Assembly: GCF_000003815.2 (NCBI RefSeq) | Contig: NC_049982.1 | Location: 33,516,308-33,580,307 of the forward strand | Reading direction: 5' to 3' | DNA: 64,000 nt | DNA from: Branchiostoma floridae | Taxonomy: Eukaryota > Chordata > Leptocardii > Amphioxiformes > Branchiostomatidae | In this document: piece by piece, positions 31,136 through 63,082 of the stretch | Layout of the letters: the number at the start of each line of letters is the position of its first letter | Position numbering within the stretch: position 1 is the first letter of the stretch | Made by a program: the position numbers and the translations under genes | Notes under the pieces: model-generated | What the model was told of the DNA's origin: nothing | Seen by the model: only the letters and a program-made list of their open reading frames with translations | Databases searched by the model: none

Positions 31136-33705
31136 CTATATCCTCTCAGGAGATGCTGATAAAAAAGGGTATTCAGCACACAGTACTGTGCCACAAGCAT
31201 CTGCCCTCAGCTTCTTATGATGTCGCCGATTCAGCTTGACAAACTTGTCTACAGCAGATTTTTCATTGTACTGTCCCCAGTATATTGCTGGTGCATATGG
31301 ACGAGGACCATAATCCATAACTTTCTTCAGGAATGATGTGTTTTGTTCACTTACCGTTTCATCTGAACGAACCTTCCTTACTGCTTCGTACAAATTACTG
31401 GCAGTTATTCTCCCTTGTCTATATTTGAACCAACTATCTGATTGTGTCTGGTCTTTGGTGGTCTCTCTGATGATGTTAACTACTTCTTCTGATACAGGTG
31501 TTGTTGCTAGTTGGAACAGTTCTTGAGTACTGCTAGCCTCCTGTGCAATTTCTGGTAAAGTTTTTGGAAGATCTGGCATACAAATATATTCTGCATTGGT
31601 AACAACCTCTTCATTAACAACATGTTCAACATCGGGCATCTCAGACTCATTGCTGCCAAACTGTACATAAGCCAATATCCCTGCACTACCATTTGTTGCC
31701 ACCCTGAGTCCCTCTAACTCCAGGTCCTGGAGAGTCTTGTCCTGTCTGTCCTCAACTGCCCTGGGATCATTGTTGTATCTTGTACGTTTTGTGTGGTTGC
31801 TGTCTTCTTCCAGTCCACAATCACCTGAACCATAAGTAATTTTCCATCAGCAAAAACTAAAAGAAGATTAGAGTTTACCAGAGAAATGTTCTGAAGTAAG
31901 ACTGTTGTTGCAGCCATAACTATTTGGTGTTTTTATCACCACTGCAACAAGTCATTCTATTCATTACATATATATGTACTGTGATAACAATAACTACTGT
32001 GTAGTAAGGATCAGCCATAATGCATCATAAAACAATACTAGTACAGGTTTTATACAATAGAATTATAGTAATTCATACAATACTTTATGTAACATTTCAA
32101 TTTCCACAGGTTATAAAAGCAGTATTAGCTTTAAACTGTACCTTTGACTTTTCGGATGGTTATGTCCTTTACGAAGTCTGGCTTATGTGGCTTCTTCGAT
32201 GGTGCATGCCAGGCTTGGACTTTCTCAGTCACTGCTTTGTTATCACCTCTGGCAACTGTTTCAATAACAGTGTGACACAGCGCTGCAATGTGCTTGCAGG
32301 TCCCTTGAATACTAAAATTGAAAACAATCACAAATAGATTAGTCGAACCTGGTCATTGTACTGTGCTACTTAACTGAAGTAAGACTATTGTAAGACAACA
32401 AAAGGACTGATCAATGATAAACTTGTCAAGGTTTAGATTTCTAATAACACAATGCGGAAAAAAAAGTAGTATTACATACCCTCCAGGACAGGAACAGTAG
32501 CCATCAACAATGATGTTTCTTCTCTTGTGTACAATTATCCATGTGTCGTATGGAGGCAGTGAGACACTTGTCTCCCTGACAGCTTTGCAGCGGATGAAAC
32601 AGTACGGGCTGTCCACGTGTACTCCATGGACTTGCAGATTGCACACGTGCCCAGAGAGGTGCAGACTTTTTCCGTCTCGCAGCGCCTCCTTTCCCGCTGT
32701 TTTGATGTTCATATCCTTGTTTTCTAAAATTGATATAGTGAGATACAGATATCAACACATAGCTGGTACTTAAATTCTGTCCTTCCCTACAGATGTACTT
32801 TTCACATAAACTGCATGCCTGCGGTGCATTGAAAAATAATTAACCCTGTAAATGGCATTTTCAGCAGCCAGCAGTACGACAGAGCAGATGCTAGACTATG
32901 TATACTACAGTGTATGTCTACACTTCTGCAACCTTTTAAAACCACCGTGAACACTCCACTTTCCCACTAGCAAGAAATTAAATCCCCACTATTATATGCA
33001 CCTTGCTGGATTACACAAAACGTTTGTCAAGCACACCAACAATTACAAAATTAACATCATCATGCAATTGAAAAGCCTATGGTGCATTTACAACCTGTCA
33101 ATATTAAAGATAAATAGTAATATCTTGTGGACACTTACCCAAATTATTAAGAACTCAACATATATGCATGAACTGCAGATGCTGAAAAATATATGGACAA
33201 AATGAACAGTCAGAACTTTGATGAACAGTTAGCACATGTAACACATTATTATAGTTAGTAGTACTAGGTCAAACCAAGTCAAACCAAACAACTATGTAAC
33301 AGGAATGTACTGAGAAAAAAAACAACAACAATAGATTGTGACGATTTTCTGCGTGACTCACTTCGCTCAAAGTAGTTTTCAACTCCAACTTGAAGTAGAT
33401 CTGGAAGACCTGAGCCGTCAGACTCCCACCCTGCTGCCAAAGACGAAGAAGAAGGATTTGGTAACCTTATAAGGCCCATCCAAGATCAGTTTTTGCTCGA
33501 TGTATCGGGTGTGGCCGGGGTCACTGATTCCCGATCCCTTTGGTAGAGACAAAAGCTGCGCCTTCTTGCATAGACGAATAAGTTCATGTTTGTTTTTGTC
33601 ACTTGATGGGACTTCTCGGTTCGACAGAAATAATTTTAACTCCTGTATATTCCACTTATCGAACTCAAGGTCGCCGTCGCACGTGTTGCTGCCCGACGCC
33701 GCCAT
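31136..33705 (-). pseudogene. SAP-SWIM-YqaJ nuclease gene of the transposon, C-terminally truncated
   Basis: Five exons, minus strand: 33705-33525, 33433-33362, 32723-32480, 32311-32142, 31824-31136; 451 residues, all phases consistent. The first junction (91-bp intron) is the least certain. Exon 1 holds a SAP DNA-binding motif (WNIQELKLFLSNREV, HELIRLCKKA). Exons 3-4 build a SWIM zinc finger, CSCPGG spliced to TCKHIAAL (C-x-C, C-x-H). The last exon starts a YqaJ exonuclease domain (WFKYRQGRITASNL, IYWGQYNEKSA). It stops at LSASPERI, where family members normally have SPDG followed by an E-x-K motif, so the metal-binding core is incomplete. The start ATG at 33705 lies just inside the right inverted repeat; an in-frame ATG within the repeat is less likely. 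It may be inactive as a nuclease but still bind DNA. Confidence 0.75.
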
Positions 33706-41405: not shown

Positions 41406-43731
41406 CTAACACCTCTTAGATTGTCGCAATCCATTCTAAGGTTCTTTACACAAGTTTACTTAAAGTTTAAACCATGAAACTAAAACACCTTCTGAAGGTG
41501 GTCAAGCACCAGGAGGCCAAAAGGCATAGAAAAGATCAGGATCACAACACCTTACCACGTTACAAATATCATTGCAACCCTTCCACAGGGTCCTAAGTTA
41601 TTTGCTGCGCACACAAATATACACAAAACAACCAACCCTGCAGATCAACAACAAAATTCACACCAAATAAGCATCCACTATACATTTATGTACACCTAAC
41701 CACACATAAAAATCAACACCATAGCAAGTCCAGGTGCAAAGATATATCACAAAATATGCTGCTGCAGTACCAAGGTCAACCAACAGGGGGCATAACATCG
41801 ACCTGCACCATCACCATGCCCACACCTACCGAAAACCTTTCAGCCGTTTGAGACATACCCCACTTAACCTCCAGGGTGAAAACAGTATGGCAACAATATG
41901 GTATGGCATCTTCATGGAGGTAAAAAATGTGAATGTCAACAAAGTACAAACACAAGAATCATATGGTAAGTAAATTGACTTCTTCTCTCTTCTTTGTGAT
42001 CCTAAAAACGTAGGAACAAATATCTTCGGCAGCTGGACATTACCCAAAGAAGAAAAAGAAAGGTTTGCCTTAATTCATAGAGAATTAATAATTTGTTTGG
42101 CGACCTCATATCTCCATGAAATATTTAGAGCTTTTGCAAATTTTATGCAATTGACTTGTACATTTATGCATGGTGTTGTTCATCATTGACTAACGTACAC
42201 ATGTCACAAGAATAAAGTTCCCATCATTAACCGTTTTTTCTACTTCATTTATTGAAGTCTAGTTATTGAAAACACTAAAATTATACAATTTCGTAATTAA
42301 TGATGCAAATTTATTGGTCATTTACATAACATGTATATCATTGTGACCTGCATGCCTAGTAATGGAAATCTGTCGTTCATTTCTGCAGTGATCCTCCTTT
42401 GATTGTCTTGACAAAAAGGGGAAAGGCGGCAAATGTTTATTTATGCTTGTAAACATATTTACTAAGTCTCTTCTACATCATAAAAGGGTAAAACAGTGAA
42501 AAAACTTTTGAATAAATACCATTGGTAATGTATTACACCCGATAATTTCGCTTAAGAGCGGTTTCAGCGCATTTGCGCGTCACATGAGCTTTGCAATTAA
42601 AAATTGGAGAAAGGCGACAAATGGTAATTTTTGTTTGCAAACATCTTTATTAAGTATATTCTACCTTATAAAAGTGTAAAGCAGTGAAAAAAACTTTTGA
42701 ATAAATGCCATTGGTAATGTATTAGAGCCGATAATTTCGCTCAAAACGGTTTCAGCGCATTTGCGCGTCACATGAACTTTGCAATTAAAAATTGGAGAAA
42801 GGCGGCAAATGGTAATTTTTGTTTGCAAACATCTTTATTAAGTATATTCTACCTTATAAAAGTGTAAAGCAGTGAAAAAAACTTTTGAATAAATGCCATT
42901 GGTAATGTATTAGAGCCGATAATTTCGCTCAAAACATAAGGTTAAGAGCCATTTCAGTGCACTTGCGCGTCACATGAACTTTGCAATTAAAAATCGGGGA
43001 AAGGCGGCAAATTATTATTTTTGCTTGCAAACATCTTTATTAAGTCTATTCGGCATTTTAAATGTGTAAAACAGTAAAAAAAACGCTTTTGAAAAATGCC
43101 ATTGGTCAAAATGATCAAAACATAAGGTTAAGAGCCTTTTCAGCGTATTTGCGCGACACATGAGCTTTGCAATTAGAAATCGGAGAAATGCGGTAAATTA
43201 TCATTTTTGCTTGTGAACATCTTTATCAAGCCTATTCTGCATTATAAATGTGTAAAACAGTGAAAAAAACGCTTTTCAAAAATGCCATTCGTAATATATC
43301 ACACCCGATAACTTCGCTCAAAATATAAGGTTGAGAGCCATTTCAGCGCACTTGCGCGTCACATGAACTTTGCAATTAAAAATCGGGGAAAGACGGCAAA
43401 TTATCATTTTTTGCTTGTAAACATATTCTACCTTTTAAATGTGCAAAATAGTGAAAAAAAAACCTATTAAAAAGAATGCAATTAACCCGATAATTTCGGT
43501 CAAAACAAGATTAAGAGCCATTTCAGCGCACTTGCGCGACACATGAGCTTTGCAATTAAAAATCAGATAAAGGCGGCAAATTGTTATTTTTGTTTGCAAA
43601 CATCTTTATTTAGGCTATTGTACCTTCAAAGGTGTAAAAACAGTGAGAAAAAACACTTTTGAAAAATGCCATTCATAATGTATTAGACCCGATAATTTCG
43701 CTGAAAACGCATGATTTAGACCCTTTGAGCG

Positions 43732-44694
43732 GGGTTTATGAAAAAGGCTGGACTGTCTACCTGGGCTGGCTATCACGTCAGGCTACTTGGACCTACGACA
43801 GCCCATTGGGACAAAAGCTGTTTAGCAGTAGGGGTTGTCTGTGCTCAATGAAGAAGCTATGTGTGAAGCTATTGTGAGAGGTTCTGAGTTCAAATCAGTT
43901 GATATGCCACCGATCTTGTGCCCTTGCTGGGAAGGGCTATTAACACGACTTATCGAGCTGATTGGATTAGTCTTAAGACTGGTGGCTTACGTGGCTAGTT
44001 GGTCAAAGGCGTCCAGGAGCCGTTCTTTAGTGGCTGTCGGGGTCCAGGCTTTTGTGCCATGCATTAGGATCGACAATTGAATTGTGAGGAGCTTAAAATA
44101 AGCGTTGCTAAAGTGCAAGGGTCTAGAAACTGCTGCCATTCGCTGCTAACTCAGGTGACCTCAATACGACAGCAATTACCCCAGGTGTGGCCATAGGACT
44201 TAAGGTTTTAAACCACTTACATTGGGAAGGAAGGACCCCTAGTCTTTTCCGTAAGTGTGGTGGGTTCTTTGCCCTATCTGAGGGAGGGCCCTTACCGAAG
44301 CTAGGTACTCTTTTCTCTACCCTAGTGAAGGTAGGAAAGTCGTGTTATTCTACTGTTAAGAGCTCTTCCCAGGCGCACAAGATCGGTGATTCAAACCCAG
44401 AACCTCTGGGTTATGTAAGATACACAGCACCTTCACACACAGCTGCTTCACACACAGCCCCTTCACACACAGCTCCTTCAAACACAGCTGCTTCACAAAC
44501 AGCTCATTCACACACTGCCACTTCACACAGCTCATTCACATTATAACACACAGATCCTTCAGACACAGCTTCTTCGCTGAGAACAAACAACCCCTACTGC
44601 TAAAGCAGCTTTTGTCCCAATGGGCTTTCGTAGGTCCAAGTAGCCTGACGTGATAGCCAGCCCAGGTAGACAGCCCAGCCTTTTCCGTAAACCC
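43732..44694. mobile_element. Mutator-like nonautonomous element with long inverted ends and 9-bp duplication
   Basis: Inverted ends of about 138 bp (left GGGTTTATGAAAAAGGCTGG; right inverse GGGTTTACGGAAAAGGCTGG) are flanked by CTTTGAGCG on both sides (43723-43731, 44695-44703). Nine-base duplications and long ends are characteristic of Mutator-like elements. A satellite unit near 45715 (CCTTTTGGGCGCTCTTGCGC) shows the uninterrupted target. The interior holds a SINE fragment (about 44235-44410) and a (TTCACACACAGCTCC)n minisatellite at about 44430-44540. No transposase. Confidence 0.8.
44235..44410 (-). mobile_element. SINE fragment inside the Mutator-like element
   Basis: Words GTGTGGTGGGTTCTT, AGCTAGGTACTC and GCACAAGATCGGTGAT parallel the copy at 46300-46612 in the same orientation. 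Both ends appear lost. Confidence 0.6.
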
Positions 44695-46299
44695 CTTTGA
44701 GCGCTCTTGCGCCAGATATAAACTTTTGAGTCAAAAACGGGGAAAGGCGGCAAGTCTTTATTCATGCTTGCAAACATATTTACTAAGTCTATTTTACATT
44801 ATAAAAGTGTAAAACAGTGAAAAAAACTTTTGAATAAATGCCATTGATAATGTATTATACCCGATAATTTCGCTCAAAACATAAGGTTAAGAGCTCCTTT
44901 CCAGCGCATTTGCGCGTTACATGAACTTTACAATTAAAAAGTCGGGGAAAGGCGGCAAATGGTTATTTTTGTTTGTTTACATCTTTATTAAGTATATTCT
45001 ACCTTATAAAAGTGTAAAAAAGTGAAAAAAAAATTTTGAAAAAATGCCATTGGTAATGTATTAATATTAGAGCCGTTAATTTCGCTCAAAACATAAGGTG
45101 AAGAGCCATTTCAGTGCACTTGCGCGTCACATGAACTTTGCAATTAAAAATCGGGGAAAGGCGACAAATTATTATTTTTGCTTGTAAACATCTTTATTAA
45201 GCCTATTCTGCATTATAAATGTGGAAAACAGTGAAAAAACGCTTTTGAAAATGCCATTGGTAATGTATTACACCCGATAACTTCGCTGAAGAGCGGTTTC
45301 AGCGCATTTAAGCACATAAGGCTGAGAGCCATTTCAGTGCACTTGCGCGTCATATGAACTTTGCAATCAAAAATTGGGGAAAGTGGGCAAATTATTATTT
45401 TTACTTGTGAACTTCTATATTAACTCTATTCTGCCTTATAAATGTGTAAAAAGGTGAGAAAAAACACTATTGAAAAATGCCATTGGTCAAAATGCTCAAA
45501 ACATAAGGTTAAGAGCCTTTTCAGCGCATTTGCGCGACACATGAGCTTTGCAATTAAAAATCAGATAAAGGCGGCAAATGGTTATTTTTGCTTGTGAACA
45601 TCTTTATCAACTCTATTCTACCTTATAAAAGTGTAAAACTGTGAGAAAAACCCTTTTGATAAAATGCCATTCATAATGTATTAGACCCGATAATTTCGCT
45701 GAAAACGCATGATTGAGGCCTTTTGGGCGCTCTTGCGCCAGATATAAACTTTGGAGATAAAAAAAGGGAAAGGCGGCAAATGTTTATTTATGCTTGCAAA
45801 CATATTTACTTAGTCTCTTCTACGTTATAAATGTGTAAAACAGTGAACAAACACTTTGAAAAAAATGCCATTGGTAATGTATTACACCCGGAAATTTCGC
45901 TCAAAACATAAGGTTAAGAGCGTTTTCAGCGCATTTGCGTGACACATGAGCTTTGTAATTAAAAATCGGGGAAAGACGGCAAATGGTTATTTTTGCTTGA
46001 AATCATATTTTGCTTGTGAACATCTTTATCAATTCTATTCTACCATATAAAGGTGTAAAACAGCGGAAAAACACTTTTGAGTAAATGCCATTGGTAATGT
46101 ATTACACCCAATATTTTTCCTCAAAACGTAAGATTTTGAGCCTTTTTATATGAACTTTGCAATCCGGGGAAAGGCGGTACTTGTGGTCGCCTTGTGCATA
46201 GTTTTCAACGTTAAACATAACTTACTACATCAAATTTTATCCTATGCTTTGGTTTGTTTCGATACAGATCTCCATAGGTGACTATAATGTAACTATTCT

Positions 46300-48524: not shown

Positions 48525-51500
48525 TTAACAAGGCTCATCTTTCTTCCATGATACTCTCAGATCAAGAGGCCCTACAAACCTCTCTTCATCAAGCAATTCA
48601 TTTTTCTCACAGGGGGATGAAAACACATCCTCACATTCTGAAAACACTTTCCCATTTTGAACCAATGCATTCACTTCTGGGTATGTCACTTGGTCTTTTA
48701 CACCTGGATATTCCTTTGGGATCTTTTCCCCATGTGTGGGAGTGTCCCACTGTGAAAGAACGGTTTGTTCTGTGGAAGAGATGAGTGGGGATGAAGTAGA
48801 CCTTCCTAACTGTGGAACATGGTAAGATAAATCTTCTGGAACATCTGAATCAACAGCTTTACTGCTAGTGGAAGTAACTGGTGGAAAGTCAGAGCTGCTA
48901 TTGACATAACGTCTGGGTGAACCCCTGTCTTTGTTGGACTTTTGTATCTTTTCTTTTGTGGCAAGCTTATTCTTGGCTTTTGTTTTGGAAACCAAGTTGA
49001 ATGGCTTGTCCAACTGACTAGCTGATACAGATACTTCATTGGCATTCTTTGCCACTTGAAGCTGCTTCCTGTGCTTGGCTGGTGAGTCTACTTTTTCAGT
49101 TTGGTGCTTTTCATTAGACTTTGTGATTTTTACCCTTTTGTTGAACCGTTTAAAGTGCTCAGCTTCGACCAAGGCACAGCATGGACAAATGGAGAATCCC
49201 AACAACCGCTTCTTCTGTATTCTTACTGATGACCTCGAAGCTTGTGCAGTGTTTGATGGACACTCATCCCTGTGATCTGATTTCTCAATGGCCTGGACTG
49301 GATCAACTTTATGTTTCTTGTTGGATGCCTTTTCAGGCTTGGCTTTGCCTAGATCATGGCCTGTTGAGGTAAATGATGGCAAAATGCTACATTTCTTCAA
49401 CGTTTTCTTTCCCTGGGATATTTTCACATTTTCAGGAGACACTGTTAAATTACCCCTTTCTCTGCACAAGCCATCGCTAGAGCTGGCTGAGACAGTAGTA
49501 GAGGATGTGTGTGAGCTATTTTCTATTCTACCCTTAGCACCTTGTTGGGCATTTAAATTACTGTTATCTTTTGCCCCTGAAAGGGACACTGCATTTGAAC
49601 TGAGTTTTGGCTTTGGTCCCTTTGTCTTTGAGTCACTGCTTGGATGGTGGCACCACAGGATGGAAGGATTGCTTTGTACAACAAACAGCTTCTTGGCAGC
49701 TTTGCATTTCCTTCTTCCCACGTCTTCATATGGAATGATTCTGTTCTTTGCTGGGGTCATGGTGGCAAATTTCCGAAGAGTCTTTCTGAGTCTGTCTGCC
49801 TGCCTGTCTATTTTGGTTTTTGGAGTCTTCTGTTGTTTTGTTGCTCTTAGTGTGGTACTTGGGTTCATAATAGGTTTGCTGGGTGAGATTGGCACAGCTT
49901 CAGCAAGATCCTTGGTCATTGAAACTTCTTCAAATCCTTTCTTTTTTGTCTTGGAACATTTGGTGCTGTTATGTTGAGTATGTATGTACTTTTCACACTG
50001 GGGTGATGGAGTCACCTGAGTTAAGGCCACTTGCTCCCGGCTCTGACATAGCCTAGTTTTGCTACTACCCACTCCTACTAATCTCATGACGGTGTCATAC
50101 GTTACTGGCTGAGTAAAAAGACTCTGTATAAGACTTCCATCTCCGGATCCCGTCCCTGGCTTCTCTGATGTCTTCACCCAACCATTGCTGATGATTGCAT
50201 CTTTGTACTGGAGTGTCAGACTTGTGTTCAGGGACATGCAGTTGTATCTTAGATCTGTCTTTGGACACCGGGTCACTTTTCTCTTCACCAGAATGTCACA
50301 TGTGGATGCTGCTGCTTCCATGTCTGTTGTATCAATTTCTGTTTTGCTGTTCTCTTCTTGGTTAGAACTTAAAGCAATAGCTGTATCAAGCTCTCTGTCA
50401 GAGGTCACCTCATTTGGATGGCTGCTCTTTACCAAGTTGGGTTGATTGTTATTTGCTGTTTCAAGGCTGCCATGATCTAACTTCATAGCTTGATCTACAC
50501 AGATAGATCCACTTTTCAGTTCAGCTGACACGGTCTCCATAACATGTTTTGCATGTTTTTTGGTGTAAATGGTATTGTTAAGGGACTCAGAGAGAACATA
50601 GTTTCTTGGCCTTCCTTGATGTACATTTGCCATGAATTCAGCATCGGATGACAATGGAGAATGTTTTCTGGGTCTTTTCCTTGCTTTTGGCATTTCCTGA
50701 GAATTGTTTGATTGTGCTACCATTCTGCAGGGCAAGCTCCTCAACTTCCTTTCATCATCTTCAACCTCAATCTTACAAGAAGTGTATTGTGTTCTTGTCT
50801 CTACTTGCACATTATTGCATGTATGTGACATCCTACCAGAGATCCCTTCACTTACAAGGTGTTTGCTATATTCAGAGTTAGATTTGGAATCATTCAGAAC
50901 TACAGGTTTCTCTGCTATTTCAATTGAAAGAGATTTTGTTTCCATATCCTCTGTTTCTGCATCTTTGTCAAATGCAGAATTATTCTGGCAATCTATTAGT
51001 TTTTTAAGACTAGGTGATGCCCTTGTCATGGTGACAGTATTTTCAGCTTGCTGTTTCCTCTCTTCCTCTCGCAGTCTTGCAACTCTCTCAGGCAGAACTC
51101 TCAGCTGTCGCTTCTCATAAACTTCGACAACACTCTTGGTCATTGGCTGATCAAGCTCCCGTTTCACAACTGGCATGTCTATTCTTGTCATGTTCACCTC
51201 AGATTCATTTGGGCATGAATGCTGAATTCCTGAGACACCAGCACTGGCAGTGGGTGGAGATCTAGGATGCAGCACAATGGAACGTTGTTCTACTTGCATT
51301 GGTTCCTCTGCACCTTTGCAATCATACTGCCTATCTGTCCCATCCTGCAAGATCAGCTTTGTATGTTTGATAGGGGTAGGTTTATTACCATCATCTTTGT
51401 TACTGTCAGTGGGGCAATTTGGACCTATTCTCAAGTCCCTGGTAGGGCAATGTTTCTGCGATATCTTGCAATCTGTTGTTTTTTGCAAAGTTACCAGCAA

Positions 51501-54135
51501 ATGCTTTCTGCTTTTTTTGCTCAAGCAGGGCATACTCTTGGTACTCTCTCTGAGGCGTTTGTGTCTTGATGGTAGTAGCCGGAGTCTCCTGATAGCAGCT
51601 GGCATAAAGCTCTCTGGCTTCTGGTACTTCTTCAGGACGACTGTGTGGAAAGCTTTTAGCACTTTGGTACGAGCTCTCCTGTGTGGCAATGTGCGTATCC
51701 CTAGCTTCATTACATTTTTTCCTTCGTCATCTTTTTCTTCAACCTGACTGTTCCCCCTCGTTTGTTTCCTCACAAACTTTGGTGGTGCAGACAATGAAGC
51801 AAGAGCTGCAGTTTTCTTCGTTGAAAGCACATGGTTTTCCACTTTACAGCCTGTATCAAGTGAAGCAGTTACAAAGGTGCAAGTGCATGGGAGATCTGTA
51901 CTTTGTGCTGTCTTGCAGGAGCACACAGTGGACACAGTCCATTTCACATCAAACCAATTGTCATCTTCATTGCCATCAATGGATGTACATCTTTGCTTTA
52001 CATCAGGACAAGTAGAATTGATAACTGGAACTGGCTTTGCTTTGTCTCTTGTTTTTGGCTGCATTGACTGATGACTGCCTTTGTGTTTACACTGCCTTCG
52101 TGGTGTGCTTTGAAATTTATCATCATTGACTTTGGCTAGTCTCACAGGTAGGGGTCTTAGAGCCTTGCATGTGGCAACGTTACCATCTTTCTTGCCAGGA
52201 AGAACATGGTCAGTTTTTAACTGGGCCTGTCTCACTACCCTCTTAGCAGAGGGGCGTAACTTTTTCAAAACTTCAATGTCCCCTACACCAGAAGGTACTG
52301 ATTCTTTTTTGGGGATGAGAACCCTTACCATTTTCCCTGACTTTCCTTTCACCCACATCCACTTCCTAGGTCTTCCTGTACGTCTGCATGGGAGCCTGTC
52401 TGCCACCTTTTTTTTATGAACCCCATGTTGAGGAATTTGTCTGCTACTGAGCTTCCTTAATCGGACATGACATGGTAATATCCTAGCCTTTTGAAGCTGA
52501 AGATCACTTTCTGAAGCTTCCTGTGTTGATGACCTGTTGAGAAGATAGTGACCCATACCTACATGCCTGGTTTCATCCTTACATTTATTCTCAAACTTTG
52601 CAAAACCTGTCAGAGGCCTGTGTGGAAGGCAGTGAAGGTGTCTACGTTTAGGGGCATGTTGAGGACAATGTTCAGTAGTCAAACATTTCCTAGAGAAAGC
52701 CTGTTTTCTTGTGTTTTCTGAGCTACCTGCAGTTTTAATGTCTGTATAGATACCACACAAATTTTCCTGATTGTTAGTTGGTAGACCTTTGCACAAGCTG
52801 TTGGACAGAGTCTTAGTAATACTAGGATGTGGTACATTATCATCATGAACATGGTCAATCTTGCTAATACCAGAGCAGCTGCCTTCTGGTGGGCAGTAGT
52901 AGTCTGAAGAATTCTCCTTACTGTTCACTGAAGCCTGACTACTTTTACTGCTGACAAATGACTTAAGACCAGCATCCCTGCCCATACTGTCAATTTCTGC
53001 CTTGTTGACATCTTTGTCTCCAAAAATGTTACCTTGGGATTCCTTTCTTAAGGCTGGGCAGAAAGCAGTTGCCCAATACATGGTGGGCATCGGAGACAGT
53101 ATAGGAGGGGGTGGGTCATCACTATCATTATTGTCCTCATCCTGTTCTAAAGAATAAACTGATGAGTGGTCCCTCTCAGTGACAGGGCTTAGGCTTGGAG
53201 GAGATATGCTATAGCAGCTTAATGTGTCACTGTCCTGCTTGTTCCTTGTTTTGTCTGATGGCAAAGGGCCAGATGCTGCATCAGATGACAGGCCAATGGG
53301 TTTAAACAGATATGAAGGATAGACATCAACACAATCTTTGTCTACATGAAAGTTCACATCACTATCATTAATCATTCTACCCATGTTGCCTATTTCATCA
53401 TTTATGGCACCAACTTTACAAGCCTCTACATTGCACTCGTTCCTAATCATGTCACTCCATGGCCCACCCATAGCCATGTCAGGAAGAGAGCTCTTCGGAC
53501 ATTTCTTGAGATTGCTTGTAAGTTGGAAAATAGTTGATGCATGTTGACTAGGAGTTGCTTGCACCTTATCATCAGCTGAGGTAGGTGGGTTATGGACATT
53601 TGTGTCCTGGGCTGTGGTTGTGGGAAGCACAGCTGTCTTGTCTTGACTAACACCTTCAGTCACACTCCCTGCAACCTCATTATTACTACTGTAACAGTTC
53701 ATCTCCAAGTCTTCAAAGCTGAATAAATGTCTACCCTTTCTTCTCTTAGAGTAAATGACCCACAGGAGAAAATCTTCATCCAGGCACCTTGTATCATTGT
53801 AAGCATTGCTGTTATGGTTAGTTACTTCTATGGGTACAGTGTTGGAGTCATTTGCTCTTATAGGGCTTTGAGGTAATATGTTTCCATTAGCTGAAACATT
53901 GTTGTCAAATGATTGACATTTGCCTAAGGCTTGGTACTTGGAACTGTGACAGACTGAATGAGACTTTCCTTGTTGAGGCAGGGGATTGGTTTCACTGCAG
54001 TGTTGAGCAGAGGAAGTGGAATCGGCTGTAGTCTTCATTGTTGCAGCAGGTATACTGAAGTGTTCTGCTGTGGGACGTCCTACTTCAGCACCATCATTGA
54101 TGTGTCCATGAGATACTTTCTCCTGGGCCTCATGA
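48525..54135 (-). CDS. PALI-like giant terminal exon of an LCOR-type locus (about 1,869 residues)
   Basis: A single uninterrupted frame. The exon probably begins at 54135 after GTCTATTTCATCTTCCTGCAG-type acceptor sequence; an ATG at 54158 inside that tract is a weaker start. Residue numbers below count from 54173. Mostly disordered, Ser/Lys-rich, nuclear in character. Visible: an AT-hook-like RTGRPRKW at about 598-605; a repeated motif [LI]-R-x-L-P-x-R at about 672, 826, 864, 1024 and 1144; a VKRE sumoylation-type site at about 1003; a Cys cluster ICPCC near 1662; PEDLS at 1779; and PLDLR at 1869, the last two CtBP-binding motifs. Vertebrate LCOR and LCORL each splice to a large downstream exon to make PALI1/PALI2, PRC2 accessory proteins. 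Position, strand, acceptor phase and the PLDL motif make this the counterpart, but I cannot align it by eye. It could instead be a separate gene. Confidence 0.6.
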
Positions 54136-54199
54136 CTGCAGGAAGATGAAATAGACATTGTTGTGCTTGCCACAAAATATTACAATGTGTGGAGAGCAC

Positions 54200-57100
54200 A
54201 TCATGATCACATTTGTCAGCAGGATAGGCAAGCCAAGATGTACAGAAGTATACATGTACCTCAAAAAGGTTGTGGTCTAACTAGAAAAAAACGGCATGCC
54301 TTAAGTTCTGGGGCATAATGATATATTGATATAAAAAGCCCTATATCAGTGTGACAGTCATTCACAATGTAAATTGTGATCCTTCCTTGGCAGGTTACAC
54401 CATTTTGAATATCAGGAGGCAACTGGCAAGACAAAATGTGACACTGTACGGAAAGACAACTGTGGTTGGGGGTGTGTGGGTCATTCCTGGTAGTTTATAA
54501 TGTGCCATGAAGTCTATGAGGACAACATGTATGGAGAGAATTTCTTTGTACATTAGAGGTGGGTATCTAACTTCATATAGTGCTTATATCATCAATGGCA
54601 ATAAAAAACAAAACTTTCTGATTACAATCAGTGGTATTTCATGAACATATTAACAAAATATACAACCTTCTGATGATATTGAACATCTTACTTACAAATC
54701 ATACTTCCAGTTCTTTGTGTTCAAGTAATCAAGTTAATCTCTGCCCAGGATGTCATAGTAAACGTGACAGCCAGTATGGAACTTGATGAAGTGACTTGCA
54801 AAAAAAAGAATTTTCAGAAGCAAAAAGTGCATAATCATCATTACGAACAAACAAGTTTTCATAATTTTTGCTTTTCTGCTTCACAAAAGAACACTTTTTC
54901 CAAGTAGTGGTAATAGGTTCTGAACCAGCTGACGTGTATACTATGACATCATGGAAATTAACTTCATTACCTGGCAACAGGAAGCAAGAGCTGGAAGTAT
55001 GATTTGCAAGATAGGTATCTAATAACAACTGAAGGGTGTGTATTTTGTTCAAACGGCTATATGCTCATTGAATGGTAGCATTATAATGGCTGAATGTGAT
55101 CATGAAATGTTGGTTTTGTGACACAAGCATTTAAAACAGGGCCTGGGACCCACACACTTCTGGCTGCAACTTTTCCTCTCTCTCAATTTTCATGCAAATT
55201 AAAATGATTTGAGCTTTGGTGAACATAATCTTTTAATTCTTAACAATACCCCGGTACCTAATTCATGGTGCCCAAATGACCAACAGAGGTCAAGTGATAG
55301 GTGAAGTGATCATAAACTTGACTGTCTGTAGGTAAGAAGTCCTAATATCAAGGCAGATCCCCGGCAGCTCAGAACACTCCGTAGCCAGCTTAACTCCCTA
55401 TACTACTGGTAGATCTGCCTGGAGATTAGGAGAGTCCTTAGAGTTAAAGCCTCGTACAACAAGTTAGACTAATCTAGTTCCCTGATGAAAACCATTGCTG
55501 GACTGTTACAGTGTGGATTGTTCAAACCACAGTATGGGCTGGTATAGAAGATGCTACATGGTAGACTATAGGGCTTATTCAGTCACATCATCCTGCCCGT
55601 AGCAACTAACCTGCTGCCATGATAGATACAACTGAAATCAGTAATTTTGGGGTCTAGTTCTGAATGGCGCCCTGTGCAGCTCTTTGTACAAATTTTAATC
55701 ATTGCCCAAGCAATGCACAATTTCCCTTCAAACCGTCTAGTTTCATAATCACCACGATTTGCTTGGTGTTGGTCCAGGATAGGAATGGTAAATGGCACAC
55801 AAATGGGGTGCATAAGATAAAACAGTAAGATTTGTTTTGTATTTGTCATGTAATAACTAGCTGCAAAGGCCGGGAACAAACATACGAACAGAAATACTGT
55901 AAATGCATTTAAGTTCGTGCAGATTTGATTTCGCGGTAGCGGGAAAATGGACTCTTCGCGTTGATTTTAATTTCGCGGTAGCACCATGCACTGCAGTCTC
56001 TTACTGTTATGGAAAAATGTTCGCGGTGGTTTTAAATTCGCGGTGAAGCAGTCGCCGCAAAAACTGCGAACATTAAACCACCACAAACGTTTCTGCATTT
56101 ATAGTACCATGTGCTGCTATGTCTGTGATAATTTGAAAAGTAGATATCAAAGAGAGGATATCTCCTAGTTCTGTGATGAATTTCTATGATGTACAAAATG
56201 TTAGCTCTGTGTGAACAACCAGGTGCTGTACAGCCACGCCACAACCCATCCTTGCATACCTTCTGTCAAATAAATCCCCTCCTACACTTTGTACTTGTCC
56301 AGATACTTTGTGGTTGTAAGCTTGGTGACACGTGCTTGTATGCTTTGAACTGATTTCATTGTGTAGAATTAAGTCTAGTGCTAGTGAAGAGTTATTCAGG
56401 AAAGTAACTGTACATCCATTGAATGACTATTAAGACAGTAGAACAGTTACTGTCTCTTCACGCAGAAATCACAGCACAGGTCCGTGCGTGATATTTGGAC
56501 AATGCTACTTGGTTGAAAGTTAGGAAAAAATGTGCACTGAAACATGTGGGACCATGTTGCAAAGCTGCTGCAAAATGAGTAAATATATATTGCAATTTCT
56601 TACTATTACAAATACTTGTGTGTTTGAAAACTGTAAGAATCCCTTCTTTTTCAAGAGTCATGATCAACAGAGGGGGGGGGGTGAGTAGTGTATGGAGTAA
56701 ATAACACCCATCTAGCAGATATTCACCATTTAAAACATCAGAACTCCACAAAAGGCAAAACTAGAGCCATGAAGACCTCTCCCAAAAAGCATGTCTTTTA
56801 TTCATTTTACTGACAGTGAAGGCCAGCTTCATATCAAACCACCACAAAATACAGGGAAATACAAAAAATGTTGAACCATTTTTCAAGTCACTCAATATAC
56901 AGCTGTGTTCAGTTCTAGGGTAAAAAGAAAAGGTTTTCACTTCAGACCATTTGGAATCTACCACCCCCTGGAAAGACTATTATTGTACTTGTATATATTG
57001 ACTTTTAAAGGCTTGGTGACATTATGGTTACATGTCAACATTTCCAAAAACTTAAAACCTAAGCAACTAGTTACATTTGTAAACACAACAATCTTACAGT

Positions 57101-60100
57101 GTGTAAGCAATGGCTGGTAAAGAAAAACAACTTTGCTTTCCAAATACATTTGATCACTATGTTGCATGCAATAATTTGTACAAGTGGGTGTTGGAAAGGT
57201 ATGGAACATTTATTAGTGTGGACAGTCTGAGCAAAATCCTACACAGTCCTTGATTGTAACATCTAAAACACATGAAAACAGTGGTAGAGACCTTCATCTA
57301 GTATAAGTTAAGTCTAGGAAAGTTTAGACAGCTTAATGGGTACATGTAGAGTCAATTCCAAGTTACTGAGAGGATTTTGAAAGAATATTGGTAATAAGTT
57401 TGAACTATTCTAGGTAAAAGAATATTTCAGTCACAATACTTAATATAAAATGAAAGTTCTAACATGTTTGACCTTACCTATACACATATAGGAAACTTTT
57501 TGAAAATAAAGGTACAAACATCTTTTTATTTAGAACAATTTTCAAACATTCTAGAGTCGATTTTGAGTCACCAAAAGGGATTCTTAGATATTATTTGTAA
57601 ATTTGTTATAAAGAATTCTAAAATGTTAGAACAGAAGGCAACAAGCACCCTCTTGGTAATGTGGAATTAACTATTGATCTTGTTCACAAAATGTAAGGAA
57701 AGGGGACAACAATTTTCTACTGTGAAGTAAAAGTTGCATGACTACTTATTCTGGTCATCTGTGCTAACCAAAGTGAGAGTTGATTTGATTACTAAACTTG
57801 GCAATACATTCCAATATCAAACCCGAACATTGGGAAACTTATTAAGGGGCACTCCACTCCAGAAGCAACTGTTATTTTCGGAAAGATGGTATTTTTGGGA
57901 TACAATTGCACCCGACTTTTTGCAAAGTTACCTGAATTTGTCTTTTCGACAGTGATCCTTTTCTAAATCAAAGTATCCCCAAACTGACCCGCTTCTAATG
58001 TACTGCGCCGTTTATGATTTTGCAAGCATAGTCGACTTCTGACTTTCTCACTAACGGTAGGCGGGATAAGCTTGACAAAGCAGTCAAGTGATCACCACAC
58101 ATTTAGGGAGATACAAAACAAGTTTGAAGACTATCTCATCTTGGGATAGAGAGATTTGGGCACTTTAGTGTAATTAGTAGAAAGTAGGTCAACATAAGGG
58201 CATCGCCAAAACTGCTTGTGTGGCCGAGGCCAGGCTATCTAAAAAGGCTACATTCATACACGGACAGAAATGACTACAGAATGACCCACAAATGATAATT
58301 GCAACACGTTGTCTGGCAGTTCTGGTGACGTTTGTGCACACACAGTCCGCTTACAAAAAGTAATCCTAAAGCATCATGGTGTCAAAATTTATACCAGTAC
58401 CAACCAGTACCTGTCCCCATGGACAAAGTCAGTCCTCCCCCACCAGCGCACAATTTGAAGGGTCCTCAGGGAACTTCAAGAACTCGTTTGCTACAATGTT
58501 CAAATTGCGGTAAATTAAATTTGACCAAACAAACTTAATTCAAGCATTACCACATGTTCTTTGAGGAATTATAATAACCGCTTCTGGAGTGGATATTACC
58601 TAATCTTAGTAGTACTACATGTAATTTGTTTTATCACATTACAATTTTCTTCTTTAAAGTGTCATTATTTTCTACAGGCACTTTTTTCTATGTCCATGCA
58701 CTTGTATTGCTCAGCCTTACAACTGGTGGCAGAGCATGTTTCTTTTAAATACTGTCCACTTGATTTACCTAAAGCTTCTCAAATTTATTTTTATTTTGAT
58801 GTGCAGGTCTGAATGCACTAAACTCTATAAAGAAATGTAGATTAAGGCAAGAACTGCACAATTCAAGTAGTAGCAAGATACATGCATGTAGAATACAGCA
58901 CGGTGTATTCCATATCACCCAAGGTACCAGCCCGACTGAGGGTAGGATCACCCGAAGCCCGGAGGGGCGATCCGACCCAGGGAAGGCTGGGACCGGAGGA
59001 TGTCATCCATATAATCAAATCAACATGGCCCGAAAACAACAATGCAACCACCATTGTTTCCAGCATTCCATCATTTCTGATAAGCTTACACAGTTTACAG
59101 TTTATCACAAGACAATACTTTCTCAATGGTGAAAACTGTAACATGCACAGATATGACAATAATATAAATGAGGTACTAATGTAGATTACACTTAACAGTG
59201 AACAGTACTGTGGTATAGGCAAACACCACAATTCATATACATGTACTCTTTGCACCACACCAACACCAAAGGTTTAAGTAATTATATATTATTATTTACT
59301 TGTATCTTTAATTTAATTTTAACCAAAAAGATTTCTTCACAATACCATCTCTGATGATTCTTGAACAAAAATATAGAAAACATGACAATATCTAAATTGT
59401 AATAATAATCATTACACATCAATATCCATATTGGTGCAACAAGCAACATACATGGTATGCCCAATGCAAGACAGACCTAGATGTCTTCATTAAATCTACA
59501 GTCAATCTGTTGGCAGAAACACTTTACAATGAGCTCAACTGTCACATTTAAACGCCATGTTCCTGATACATACATTTTTTCATTGTTTGCAAGGGTGTAC
59601 AACAGTGTGCACTGGGAATGATCTAGACTGATGCAATTCCATTCCATATATTGCTGGATGCTCAGAGGTGGGTAGCTCACCAATGTGGCATGTTGGAGTC
59701 GTGATAGAGCGCTCCACAAATTTAATGGATAAGAAACAAATCCTTTCACCCTATGTGTGTTTTGTAGGTTTTGCATGATATCCTTTAAAATTTAGTGCCA
59801 CAGTCCAGTGAGATACCGTTTAAATAAGATAACTTCACGCACACATCTTACATTCTTGATATGCTTTATTTCAAGGCCTCTAATTTTTGTTTCTGTAGTA
59901 TCAAAAGTACTGGCATCTTACTGATGGCTTCTTCCCATTAAAATGTGCAAAATTCTGTTGCCAGTCTTCAAGACTTGATATGAGCCCTATCATCAGAACC
60001 ATCTTTGCTTTCTTCATTTTCTCCCACAAAGATTGCACTTCAACATTGTTATGTCAATGAAGGATAGACATTATTGTTTGATGGCTTGAAAGAAATCATA

Positions 60101-61855
60101 AACATACCCCCTAAAGAGCTGCTGTCATCTGAAAAGAAAAATCTAAAAAAAAAAACCCGCCCAAATGCAACAATTCAGTTCCAAGAATGGTTGGTTGGTT
60201 AGAGAAGCCAGCTTTTTCACTTTCACTTTTTACAATGACAGATCAACTCAAAATCGCTCATCATTGTTCTTAAGCACTGTTTTTTTTCATGTCGCAAAAT
60301 ACCGAAACATCCAATTACCATTAGTAAGACTGTTGTGACATTTAGATTGACCACATATAATACAAGAAATTGATGTTTTTATGGTATCTTACAATTTTCC
60401 TGCCTTTCTAAAGTAATAAGAAAAGAGTGTAACCCACCTTGTTGAACAGTGTTTTACTGTAATTGTTCTACATTATTTAATTGACTTAGCCGCCCAATTT
60501 GAGGCCAAAATTGCAAAAACTTAAGAAATAAGCTTAAGTGCCATGTACATGTATAAAACATCAAATTTCTCATGATAAACAAGTTGCCATTTTTTTTTAC
60601 TTTAGTAATCATACATGGAGTCATTCAATGTCCTAAAATATAAAGTAGATGTGCCTGTCCCTTTTTCAAACGTATTGCTATTTTGCACATTTCACTGAGA
60701 ATGAGCCAAATATAAGTCATGCCTTCCTGTTGTGCTACAAGAGCATCATTCTTTTAACATCTTCAAAAGGGACCTTTTAATTTGAATATTGCACAGACAC
60801 TAATGTTATCCAACATTAGTGATCTATAAATTACATACATCTTCCTAAAGAAAAAGTGGAATGTCAAGAGAGAAAAAGAAGTCCTTTTTAGAACTTGCAA
60901 CTTAGCTTTTTAAGGGCTTCACAAAGTCGTGATGCTGAATGGAATGGAGCAAGATTCTGGACCATGCTGAGTCAAGGGACATTTTGTCTGCTACCAAACA
61001 ATGCGATTCTCTGCCCTGAAATGTATTTTGCACATTCAAAAATAAGTTATCATTATACTTCCAATGAAGCAAATTAAACAAGTTTCTCAATGTTTCTCAT
61101 AAACTTTTTATATCAAAGATATTTACTTGCACTTAGTTCTTATAAACAATGACATTTTGTTTCTAATTCTTCTCTATTTTATCACCTTCTCAACTGGCTT
61201 TAAGTCTACCAAACAAATCCATGGTCATCTTATTTTTCTAGACAGCCTGTCTGTCATAACTAAACTTAAGTACTGAGAAGGATGGAAACAGAACTTGTCA
61301 CTAAAAGTTGGGTAATATGACACTTACAATGAACAACACTTTTTAAAACAAAGTCAATTTGTAGATCTCTTTTTTTGATATGACAATCTACTACATAGAA
61401 CAGTACATACAGTTTATCCCACATGACTAGATGGTTGTGCTGTTGATAAGCCTGAATCCAAATGGATATCTCGAATCATCACAAAACACAGAGATGTAAC
61501 AAAGACCAACCATGGTAGAAACCTTGATGGAGACTTTTTTACATATTGTATTTTGCCATACTGTATTACCGGGGCTATATCAGGCTATCAAAGGTTCATG
61601 ATTGTAGCAAGTTGAGAAATATCACTTGTTGCACAAGTAGAAAAAGATTTTGGCTAGAAATGAAATTTATCACACGGATCACACGACGGTTGTGTTACAA
61701 GACTTCCTGTCAGTGTATGTAAAGCTGTGCAATACTGGCGGATATTGGGCGGGAAAACTGCATGAAAAGCGAGCCTGTAAACTGTCCTAAGGCAATTATC
61801 TAGGAAACTGTTGAACAGAGGCACTCGAGCAGTAATCCAAAGTAGAACAGATTAA
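54200..61855. other. Intergenic or intronic stretch between the two LCOR-type exons
   Basis: No supported exon on either strand. Contents seen: a CpG-poor block with GCGGTAGCGGGAAAATGG and its relatives at 55.93-56.09 kb (also near 26.0 and 32.95 kb); the TA-flanked repeat at 57349-57671; and a short repeat with ATAATCAAATCAACATGG at 58,990-59,035 (also near 21.4 and 20.6 kb). The part just below 61,855 should contain the 3'UTR of the psq exon, since it follows the stop codon there. Confidence 0.45.
57349..57671. mobile_element. Second copy of the TA-flanked GAGTC inverted-repeat family
   Basis: Left end GAGTCAATTCCAAGTTAC and right end GTAATGTGGAATTAACT are diverged inverses. The interior repeats the left-end sequence once (TAGAGTCGATTTTGAGTCAC near 57551) and shares many words with 30851-31109. 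Confidence 0.6.
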
Positions 61856-63032
61856 TTACATAGATGAGGAAGCTTGCCCAGCAGGGTTAAACTCCTCCAC
61901 TATTACACAGTCATCCTCATCATGGCCACCACTGTCTTCCTTGACTTCATGATAATCATTGTTACCAGCATACTCCTGTGCAAAATACTGGCTCCTTGGC
62001 CATGCCCACTGGAAAAAAGGGGAGGGGTACGGACTTGCACCACCACCACCACCACCACTACCTCCATGCATGTAGGAAGGGTAGTAGAAGAGACGGTTCC
62101 TTTCAGCAGCTTCTTTCAACTCAGTCCTCCGCTCTTTGACCTTGTACTCAAGCGTGCTGTGTGGAATCCTGTACAGCTGCTGTGCACGACTGATGCTCAT
62201 CAGGCCCATGGTAACCATGGAAACTGCAGTTTCCAGGTCGTCTGGGGTGTAGCAGCGGTAGCGCCCTCGTTTCCTGCGTGGGGAGTTGTTGGCATCCCGT
62301 GATGAGGCCTCGCTGTGGTGAGAGTTACCTGAGTTACCAGCAGATGGTTGGGACAGGTTCCTGCCAAATAAACTGGACTCACGCGGGTGGCGGTCCATCT
62401 GGAAACCTCCCCTGGACACAATAGTGCTCCTGAGCTTTGTTTTCAGCTGCTGGGAGGTGGTTTCTGCATTCTCATTCTGCTCCACTTCAGTCCGCCCTCG
62501 CTGTGCCACCCTGGGGATCTTCAGCTGGATAGCTTTCTTGGGTACCTTGGGCACTTGTGTTTCTCTGTGGTCCCTCTTGTCCTTGTCCTGGATTTCCTGC
62601 ATTCTTGCCACCGCAAGGGACCGCAAAATGCTGGAGGTGATGGGGAGCTTGATCTCATTTGCATAGCTCTGCTTGTGCTTTCCTTTGTCTAAAACGGATT
62701 CTTTATGACTGTTCAGAGCGCGGCGCAGAATTGCCTCCCTCTCCAACACTGCCTGTGCTTTACCACTCACACTTTCTAACAATGTGCGCAGACGGTTTCC
62801 TCCCTTTAACGGCAAGCCCTCACTTCCTGTTACCTTCTCTGCCACTTGCTTTGGCGCCGACAGATTTTCACAGTTCTTCCGATTAAGGTAGTTCCGTATG
62901 GTAGATCTCGGGACACCATACACGTTGGAGGCTTTCCTTGTGCCAAGCTTGCCGGCCCGCACGTCATGGAGGGCTCGAGACAGGTCACTTGGCGAATACG
63001 TCTGCCTGGAGTGTTTGGACCTTCCTTGATGC
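61856..63032 (-). CDS. LCOR: LCOR/E93-type transcription factor, terminal exon with two psq helix-turn-helix domains
   Basis: Ligand-dependent corepressor family (Drosophila Eip93F/E93; worm MBR-1). The exon begins at 63032 after the acceptor CTTCATCTTGTTCCAG and encodes 391 residues. First psq domain at about exon residues 11-52 (RALHDVRAGKLGTRKASNVY, then GVPRSTIRNYLNRK). Second at about 256-302 (RKRGRYRCYTPDDLETAV, then YRIPHSTLEYKVKERR), nearly identical in pattern to the single vertebrate LCOR psq domain. Between them LRTLL (81-85) fits the LxxLL nuclear-receptor box. A Gly run follows the second domain. The first codon is split (one base in this exon), so at least one 5' exon lies beyond 64 kb. 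psq domains bind DNA; the protein should act in the nucleus as a hormone-linked transcription regulator. Confidence 0.88.
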
Positions 63033-63082
63033 CTGGAACAAGATGAAGGAGCTGACTTAAGGTGCTTGTTCCTTAGGGCCAA

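What the first reader, a model, noticed from the sequence alone, without database searches (positions are those of the whole stretch)
48525..63032. LCOR/PALI-type alternative terminal exons outside vertebrates
Two minus-strand exons each end in a stop codon. One carries the LCOR psq domains (61856-63032), the other encodes about 1,869 residues (48525-54135). Both start at strong acceptors, and both begin with a single base that completes a split codon, so the same upstream donor could feed either in frame. This is the arrangement by which vertebrate LCOR/LCORL loci make LCOR and the PRC2 cofactors PALI1/PALI2. PALI proteins have been described as vertebrate-specific (from memory). A cephalochordate-like locus with this layout would move their origin back.
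Basis: partly seen in the sequence, partly recalled or inferred. Interest (0 to 1): 0.87.

Follow-up and report, generated by a model that had tools for sequence, protein, structure and literature searches.

The report
A PALI-like Polycomb exon in amphioxus
The amphioxus LCOR gene has two alternative last exons, and the second one carries a close match to the methyl-lysine switch by which the human PALI1 protein turns on the gene-silencing complex PRC2, so a protein described as vertebrate-only appears to be older than vertebrates.

Summary
Observation confirmed; interpretation supported by sequence. The window is Branchiostoma floridae. Two minus-strand terminal exons, 61856-63032 (two psq domains) and 48525-54135 (1,869 codons), start at acceptors of the same phase. 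B. lanceolatum models join both to one N-terminal part (186 identical residues) that is LCOR/LCORL-like (44% over 80 residues, E 2e-20). The large exon is homologous to the vertebrate PALI exon: the best whole-exon profile match is 21 residues, 62% identical, exactly on PALI1 K1241-F1242, the EED-binding methyl-lysine switch; 0 of 241 decoys reach its score. Individually weak matches lie in the same order: SPPxLSPV, paired AT-hook-like motifs, a GW block, SxxQxLF. Two papers, seen in passages, call PALI vertebrate-only. Differences: no DUF4553 hit; no CtBP motif in the shared part (PLDLR sits at the C-terminus); most of the tail not alignable. Not shown: RNA junctions (database models only), PRC2 binding, methylation, presence in other invertebrates.

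The parts
61856..63032 (-). Terminal exon A: C-terminal part of the LCOR-type isoform with two psq domains, own stop codon
   Evidence: HTH_psq, 2 stretches; PDB 2cob LCoR; B. lanceolatum P0006 residues 186-572
48525..54135 (-). Terminal exon B: PALI-like exon, 1,869 full codons, own stop codon
   Evidence: (P0001 100% over the exon)
63033..63034 (-). AG acceptor of exon A
54136..54137 (-). AG acceptor of exon B
49740..49802 (-). Block QADRLRKTLRKFATMTPAKNR, aligned with PALI1 QAERLKKHLKKFPGATPAKNN; the K codon 49770-49772 corresponds to human PALI1 K1241 and the next F to F1242
50178..50222 (-). Block SLTLQYKDAIISNGW, aligned with PALI1 LIANFNAQYMKVQKGW (within the PIR)
   Evidence: 11 of 1,001 decoys reach its score
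50109..50135 (-). SLIQSLFTQ, aligned with PALI SPVQMLFMT; weak (P 0.71), supported by order only
53181..53210 (-). SISPPSLSPV, aligned with PALI2 SPSPPPLSPV (lamprey SPSPPTLSPV)
   Evidence: P 0.026 with the PALI2-type profile
50601..50678 (-). Paired AT-hook-like motifs KRPRKH...GRPRN (GRPRK twice in B. lanceolatum; degenerate in B. floridae and in P0004/P0005), aligned with the paired PALI2 AT hooks
   Evidence: P 0.19
52359..52379 (-). AT-hook-like TGRPRKW; GRPRKW present in 4 of 4 Branchiostoma proteins
48540..48569 (-). PLDLRVSWKK near the C-terminus, CtBP-like motif (assignment recalled); PLDLRVSWK in 4 of 4 Branchiostoma proteins
62876..62992 (-). First psq domain (residues 14-52 of the exon translation)
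62099..62278 (-). Second psq domain, LCoR type (residues 252-311 of the exon translation)

Best explanation
This is an amphioxus LCOR/LCORL-type gene with two mutually exclusive last exons fed in the same phase by one upstream donor. The psq exon gives a two-psq LCOR/E93-type DNA-binding protein. The large exon, 7.7 kb downstream, gives a PALI-like protein: the LCOR N-terminal part plus a long tail with AT-hook-like motifs and a PRC2-interacting-type region. The most likely mechanism is that of vertebrate PALI1: PRC2 methylates the lysine of the LRKF motif, and the methylated lysine with its +1 phenylalanine binds the EED cage and activates PRC2 allosterically. Shown here: the exons, their phases, the shared N-terminal part in database models, and homology of the large exon to the PALI exon centred on K1241-F1242. 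Inferred: splicing from one donor in vivo, PRC2 binding, methylation, activation. If right, PALI existed in the last common ancestor of cephalochordates and vertebrates, before PALI1 and PALI2 separated (inference; no tree was made).
For: One N-terminal part for both isoforms in B. lanceolatum, identical over 186 residues; P0004 and P0007 have 2 differences before the split. That part matches vertebrate LCOR/LCORL: 40-44% over 74-80 residues in 10 of 10 proteins chosen, E 2e-20 to 2e-17. hhalign of the large exon (4 Branchiostoma proteins, 3 kept by its filter) against 88 representatives of 112 vertebrate long isoforms: top match 21 columns, 62% identity, P 2.2e-4 over the full exon and 6.9e-5 on the core; score 49.7 against a maximum of 33.4 in 241 decoys. 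The matched K falls on residue 1241 in the 1,557-aa human numbering for 3 of 3 mammal proteins checked, corrected only for N-terminal length. hmmsearch with the vertebrate core: by best-domain score the 4 amphioxus exons hold the top 4 of 4,008 sequences, 4,004 of them decoys. PALI2-type profile (28 proteins): top match again the KF block, 0 of 141 decoys reach it; second SPPxLSPV, third the paired AT hooks, these three in order. A MAFFT alignment of 13 sequences makes that K and F and the W of GW invariant. The KF and GW blocks are about 90% identical across P0001, P0003 and P0004 against an exon mean of 53%.
Against: Pfam DUF4553 does not hit the window exon, P0001 or P0004. A whole-exon HMM of mixed PALI1/PALI2 listed five decoys and no amphioxus exon. 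phmmer with the window exon against the large database listed only Branchiostoma. In one search the default whole-sequence E-value of P0001 was 91; only its best domain stood out. Outside the 21-residue block each other block is weak (P 0.21, 0.36, 0.71), and 7 of the 12 matches listed there are not collinear, nor is the fourth. Vertebrate features missing: CtBP motif in the shared part, and the ARKS and LxxLL of PALI1 (also lacking in dog PALI2). In the reciprocal search 20 of 112 vertebrate exons exceed every decoy; the other 92, lamprey and dog PALI2 among them, do not. No RNA or biochemical data were available.
Confidence: 0.86

Rival explanations
1. The large exon is an unrelated, lineage-specific tail of the amphioxus LCOR gene, and its LRKF motif is a chance or convergent EED mimic, as proposed for JARID2 and PALI1.
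For: Most of the 1,869 residues show no detectable similarity to PALI; DUF4553 does not hit; PMC8319299 proposes that EED mimicry by K plus an aromatic residue arose separately in JARID2 and PALI1.
Against: The similarity runs over 21 residues (QADRLRKxLRKFxxxTPAKN), well beyond K-F; it is in the alternative large last exon of the same gene; 0 of 241 and 0 of 141 decoys reach it; weaker blocks are collinear.
Confidence: 0.08
2. The large exon is an independent gene with its own promoter, starting at the in-frame ATG at 54158 upstream of the supposed acceptor.
For: The frame is open 15 codons past the acceptor and holds an ATG with A at -3.
Against: P0001 and P0003 join the exon at 54135 to the LCOR-type N-terminal part, and P0004 and P0005, the latter separately named, do so at the corresponding residue. 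The acceptor is good and its phase matches exon A.
Confidence: 0.04
3. Exons A and B are spliced together into one psq + PALI protein, as in the older model C3ZTM8 (P0002). This does not exclude the main reading; both kinds of transcript could exist.
For: P0002 joins the psq exon from an internal site to internal pieces of the large exon; one frog record, P0151, carries both DUF4553 and psq.
Against: Models of the large isoform (P0001, P0003, P0004) and of the psq isoform (P0006, P0007) each hold one exon only. P0002 leaves out 54134-53148 and 53030-51852 of the open frame. No separate B. floridae psq-only model was listed; 90% clustering may hide it.
Confidence: 0.05

Closest known systems
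PALI1 (LCOR long isoform, C10orf12) of vertebrates
   Same: LCOR-type N-terminal part; very large exon as alternative to the psq exon; K1241-F1242 block 65% identical over 20 residues with the PALI1-type profile; GW and SPxQxLF blocks in the same order
   Different: CtBP-type motif not in the shared part but at the C-terminus; no LxxLL, no ARKS; most of the tail not alignable; no DUF4553 hit
PALI2 (LCORL long isoform) of vertebrates
   Same: KF block, SPPxLSPV and paired AT-hook-like motifs in the same order
   Different: AT-hook pair degenerate in B. floridae and in P0004/P0005 (GRPRK twice only in B. lanceolatum); otherwise not alignable
E93 / Mblk-1 / LCOR psq proteins (exon A)
   Same: Two psq domains, second one LCoR-like; the Mblk-1 family is described as found broadly in animals (PMC5343783, abstract and passages)
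   Different: Nothing unusual was seen; an ordinary family member
JARID2 (K116-F117, EED-binding)
   Same: Works alike: methyl-lysine plus +1 Phe binding EED, per PMC8319299
   Different: Different gene; PMC8319299 states no common ancestor with PALI1; not a member

Membership tests
PALI (PRC2-associated LCOR/LCORL isoforms) | Product of the LCOR/LCORL gene, sharing its N-terminal part | tested here: met
   40-44% over 74-80 residues, E 2e-20 to 2e-17 in 10 of 10 chosen; 186 identical residues between the two B. lanceolatum isoforms
PALI (PRC2-associated LCOR/LCORL isoforms) | Exceptionally large exon used instead of the psq terminal exon | tested here: met
   from DNA and database models; no RNA reads seen
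PALI (PRC2-associated LCOR/LCORL isoforms) | EED-binding methyl-lysine with +1 aromatic (K1241-F1242) in its conserved context | tested here: met
   sequence only; 4 of 4 Branchiostoma proteins; KF in 88 of 112 vertebrate long isoforms
PALI (PRC2-associated LCOR/LCORL isoforms) | Other conserved PIR sequence (GW, SPxQxLF blocks) | tested here: inconclusive
   GW block reached by 11 of 1,001 decoys; SPxQxLF collinear but weak
PALI (PRC2-associated LCOR/LCORL isoforms) | Recognition by Pfam PF15090 DUF4553 (shown for 113 of the 120 proteins listed; an annotation threshold, not a biochemical definition) | tested here: not met
   no hit up to E 1 (window exon) and E 10 (P0001, P0004); lamprey 54 bits, gibbon 672 bits
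PALI (PRC2-associated LCOR/LCORL isoforms) | CtBP binding motifs (feature of PALI1 and PALI2 per PMC8864842; in the shared N-terminal part in the vertebrates looked at) | tested here: not met
   none in the shared part; PLDLR at the C-terminus of the large exon in 4 of 4. Treated as a lineage difference, so the claim here is homology of the exon, not full PALI identity
PALI (PRC2-associated LCOR/LCORL isoforms) | Binding to and activation of PRC2 | not testable with these tools
   needs biochemistry
E93/Mblk-1/LCOR psq family (exon A) | psq (RHF2-type) DNA-binding domain | tested here: met

The most novel reading that the evidence does not exclude
The methyl-lysine/EED switch of PALI, and with it accessory-subunit allostery in PRC2.1, was already in place in the common ancestor of cephalochordates and vertebrates. 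PALI would then not be a vertebrate invention that copied JARID2; vertebrates inherited it, and later frog and salamander PALI2 lost the motif.
Probability: 0.65. Interest if true: 0.82.

Novelty: new member of a known kind. Interest (0 to 1): 0.74.

Why it matters
Two papers, seen here in passages, state that PALI proteins occur only in vertebrates, and one builds on this to propose that PALI1 arose in vertebrates by convergence on JARID2. An amphioxus PALI-type exon with the same EED-binding block would place the origin before the vertebrate genome duplications. It would also give a version from before the LCOR/LCORL duplication in which to ask what the LCOR/PALI splice choice was for. The claim is directly testable with a short methylated peptide and with amphioxus RNA.

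Tried and rejected
Pfam, PDB and phmmer searches with the large exon found no vertebrate PALI. BLASTP of the 4 amphioxus exons against the 112 vertebrate exons gave E 0.001 at best, with the best hits at or across the KF block; reversed amphioxus exons gave 1.3 at best. A whole-exon HMM of mixed PALI1/PALI2 sequences failed: five decoys and no amphioxus exon were listed; focused profiles and profile-profile comparison were used instead. A first PALI2-only hhalign run gave matches at the ragged C-terminal end, 0% identical where shown; these were dropped and the run repeated with trimmed C-termini and decoys (28 of 31 proteins, 3 without a motif match left out). A conserved Gly at the splice junction was considered as further evidence. 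It holds in amphioxus and, by eye, in a lamprey pair from two genera (P0036, P0064), but not in a frog LCORL pair (P0013 against P0077), so it is not used. A search of PDB with the 65-residue KF segment found only weak, unrelated matches, best E 0.065. AlphaFold of the 215-residue core gave low confidence (mean pLDDT 51.7, pTM 0.16). Its only two helices, 10-31 and 159-174, overlap the GW and KF blocks; no fold search was made. Synteny with NCAPG was looked for in 10 other ORFs only and not found, a weak test.

Full report
What is there. The window is Branchiostoma floridae: its large exon is 100% identical to part of a B. floridae NCBI protein, LOC118413288 isoform X1 (P0001, 2,054 aa), with relatives in B. 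lanceolatum (P0003, 66%), a B. floridae x belcheri record (P0004, 60%) and B. belcheri (P0005, 60% over 91%). On the minus strand a frame of 1,884 codons ends at 48525 and one of 412 codons ends at 61856. Both exons start after a good acceptor (14 of 17 pyrimidines; 1.8% of 1,976 YAG sites scored on that strand are as good) with one base that completes a split codon.

One gene, two ends. The psq exon belongs to B. lanceolatum 'ligand-dependent nuclear receptor corepressor-like protein isoform X2' (P0006) and the large exon to P0003, 'uncharacterized protein', isoform X1. The two proteins are identical for 186 residues and then diverge; P0004 and B. belcheri P0007 differ at 2 positions before that point. 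tblastn places residue 186 of P0006 and P0003 exactly at 63031 and 54134. Both exons therefore accept the same upstream phase, with the split codon Gly in both. The shared N-terminal exons are outside the window. The first 80 or so residues are 40-44% identical to vertebrate LCOR and LCORL, E 2e-20 to 2e-17, in 10 of 10 proteins chosen. The order psq exon then large exon is also that of human LCOR (recalled, not tested).

Is the large exon PALI? To get vertebrate PALI proteins I searched with a lamprey N-terminal part; the 120 best of 445 hits were listed. 112 were used and cut to the part after the LDLS motif, then reduced to 88 representatives. By hhalign the single best match between the whole amphioxus exon (4 proteins, 3 kept by its filter) and the whole vertebrate exon is QADRLRKTLRKFATMTPAKNR against QAERLKKHLKKFPGATPAKNN, 62% identity, P 2.2e-4 (6.9e-5 against the core alone). 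Of 241 decoys (1 reversed, 120 shuffled, 120 shuffled within 20 columns) none reaches the score: 49.7 against a maximum of 33.4, mean 19.4. In mammals the K in this block is residue 1241 in the 1,557-aa numbering in 3 of 3 proteins checked, corrected only for N-terminal length. It is followed by F1242; PMC8319299 shows that this pair binds EED and reports it fully conserved in its vertebrate sample. The amphioxus pair is K1640-F1641 of P0001, K codon 49770-49772.

Supporting blocks. In a run listing 12 sub-optimal matches, ranks 1, 2, 3, 7 and 10 are collinear: the KF block, SLTLQYKDAIISNGWV, SISPPSLSPV, SLIQSLF and a match without recognisable motif; the other 7 are not, and ranks 2, 3 and 7 have P 0.21, 0.36 and 0.71. 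Tested alone, the GW block is reached by 11 of 1,001 decoys. A PALI2-type profile gives, in order of score, the KF block (P 0.0011; 0 of 141 decoys reach it), SPPxLSPV (P 0.026) and the paired AT hooks (P 0.19), all in the right order; the fourth match is not collinear. A PALI1-type profile gives the KF block at P 4.9e-5 and GW second at P 0.37. The KF and GW blocks are about 90% identical across P0001, P0003 and P0004, in the top 3% of windows, while the exon averages 53%; SPPxLSPV and SLIQSLF (71%) do not stand out. A MAFFT alignment of 13 sequences makes the K and F and the W of GW invariant. The two blocks are also where the only two helices of a low-confidence AlphaFold model lie. hmmsearch with the vertebrate core puts the 4 amphioxus exons first among 4,008 sequences by best-domain score, 13.5-14.3 bits against 9.5 for the best decoy. 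The reciprocal search puts 20 vertebrate exons, each matched at the KF block, above the best of 4,020 decoys.

Results against. DUF4553 does not hit the window exon, P0001 or P0004; phmmer with the exon lists only Branchiostoma; the full-length mixed profile failed; the default whole-sequence E-value of P0001 was 91. In the reciprocal search 92 of 112 vertebrate exons do not exceed the best decoy; lamprey P0064 ranks 84th with a 4.1-bit match that spans its KF region, and dog PALI2 does not score. Most of the tail is not alignable. The amphioxus shared part lacks the PLDLT and VLDLS motifs of vertebrates; a PLDLR motif starts 14 residues from the C-terminus of the large exon instead. ARKS and LxxLL motifs are absent from the large isoform, as they are from dog PALI2.

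How it probably works. By homology: the splice choice decides between a psq DNA-binding protein and a PRC2 cofactor that shares only the N-terminal part. The cofactor is methylated by PRC2 on the LRKF lysine and stimulates PRC2 through EED. Only the sequence homology is shown here; every biochemical step is inferred from PMC8319299 (passages and section 17 seen).

Novelty. PMC8864842 (passages; [quoted passage not shown] PMC8319299 proposes that PALI1 emerged in vertebrates by convergent evolution with JARID2. Conway et al. 2018, the source of the claim, is not held; its title is known from reference lists. Seven literature searches gave no paper whose listing or opened passages reports PALI outside vertebrates. 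Only open-licence papers are held, several lists were capped (for example 20 of 641 and 15 of 923), and most papers were seen as listings only. The gene models exist in databases (P0001, P0003 and P0004 as 'uncharacterized protein'), so what would be new is the recognition.

Noticed in passing
P0071, P0075-P0079, P0081, P0083, P0084, P0089, P0096, P0100, P0104, P0114, P0118, P0120, P0123, P0126, P0127, P0135, P0139, P0141, P0142, P0164: At the K1241-F1242 column (hmmalign) 88 of 112 vertebrate long isoforms have KF; the 24 without it are frog and salamander proteins, most of them named LCORL in the source, while the caecilian P0069 keeps it. Frog and salamander PALI2 seem to have lost the EED motif; a shifted position was not excluded.
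   Followed up: partly
48540-48569: PLDLRVSWKK (CtBP-like, recalled) lies at the C-terminus of the large exon in 4 of 4 Branchiostoma proteins, whereas the vertebrate long isoforms looked at carry PLDLT/PLDLS and VLDLS in the shared N-terminal part; the psq isoforms P0006 and P0007 have none.
   Followed up: partly
51654-51680 and 49152-49205: Two other strongly conserved blocks of the large exon in Branchiostoma (around RRARTKVLK and LLGFSICPCCALVEAEHF, 90-95% identical); no PALI counterpart showed up. By eye, motifs of the type R-x-LP-x-R recur along the exon.
   Followed up: no
6263-6829: Minus-strand ORF with a weak Cnd2 (condensin subunit 2) match, E 2e-5, below Pfam's cut-off.
   Followed up: no
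29487-30812 (+) and 31139-31846 (-): DDE_Tnp_4 transposase ORF (E 4e-41) and a neighbouring ORF with viral alkaline exonuclease / YqaJ matches, probably mobile elements.
   Followed up: no
19341-20061; 42421-45671: Tandem arrays: a 90-base unit in 8 copies at 98% match, and units of about 186-209 bases.
   Followed up: no
P0002 (C3ZTM8): Older B. floridae model splices the psq exon into internal pieces of the large exon, probably a prediction error.
   Followed up: partly
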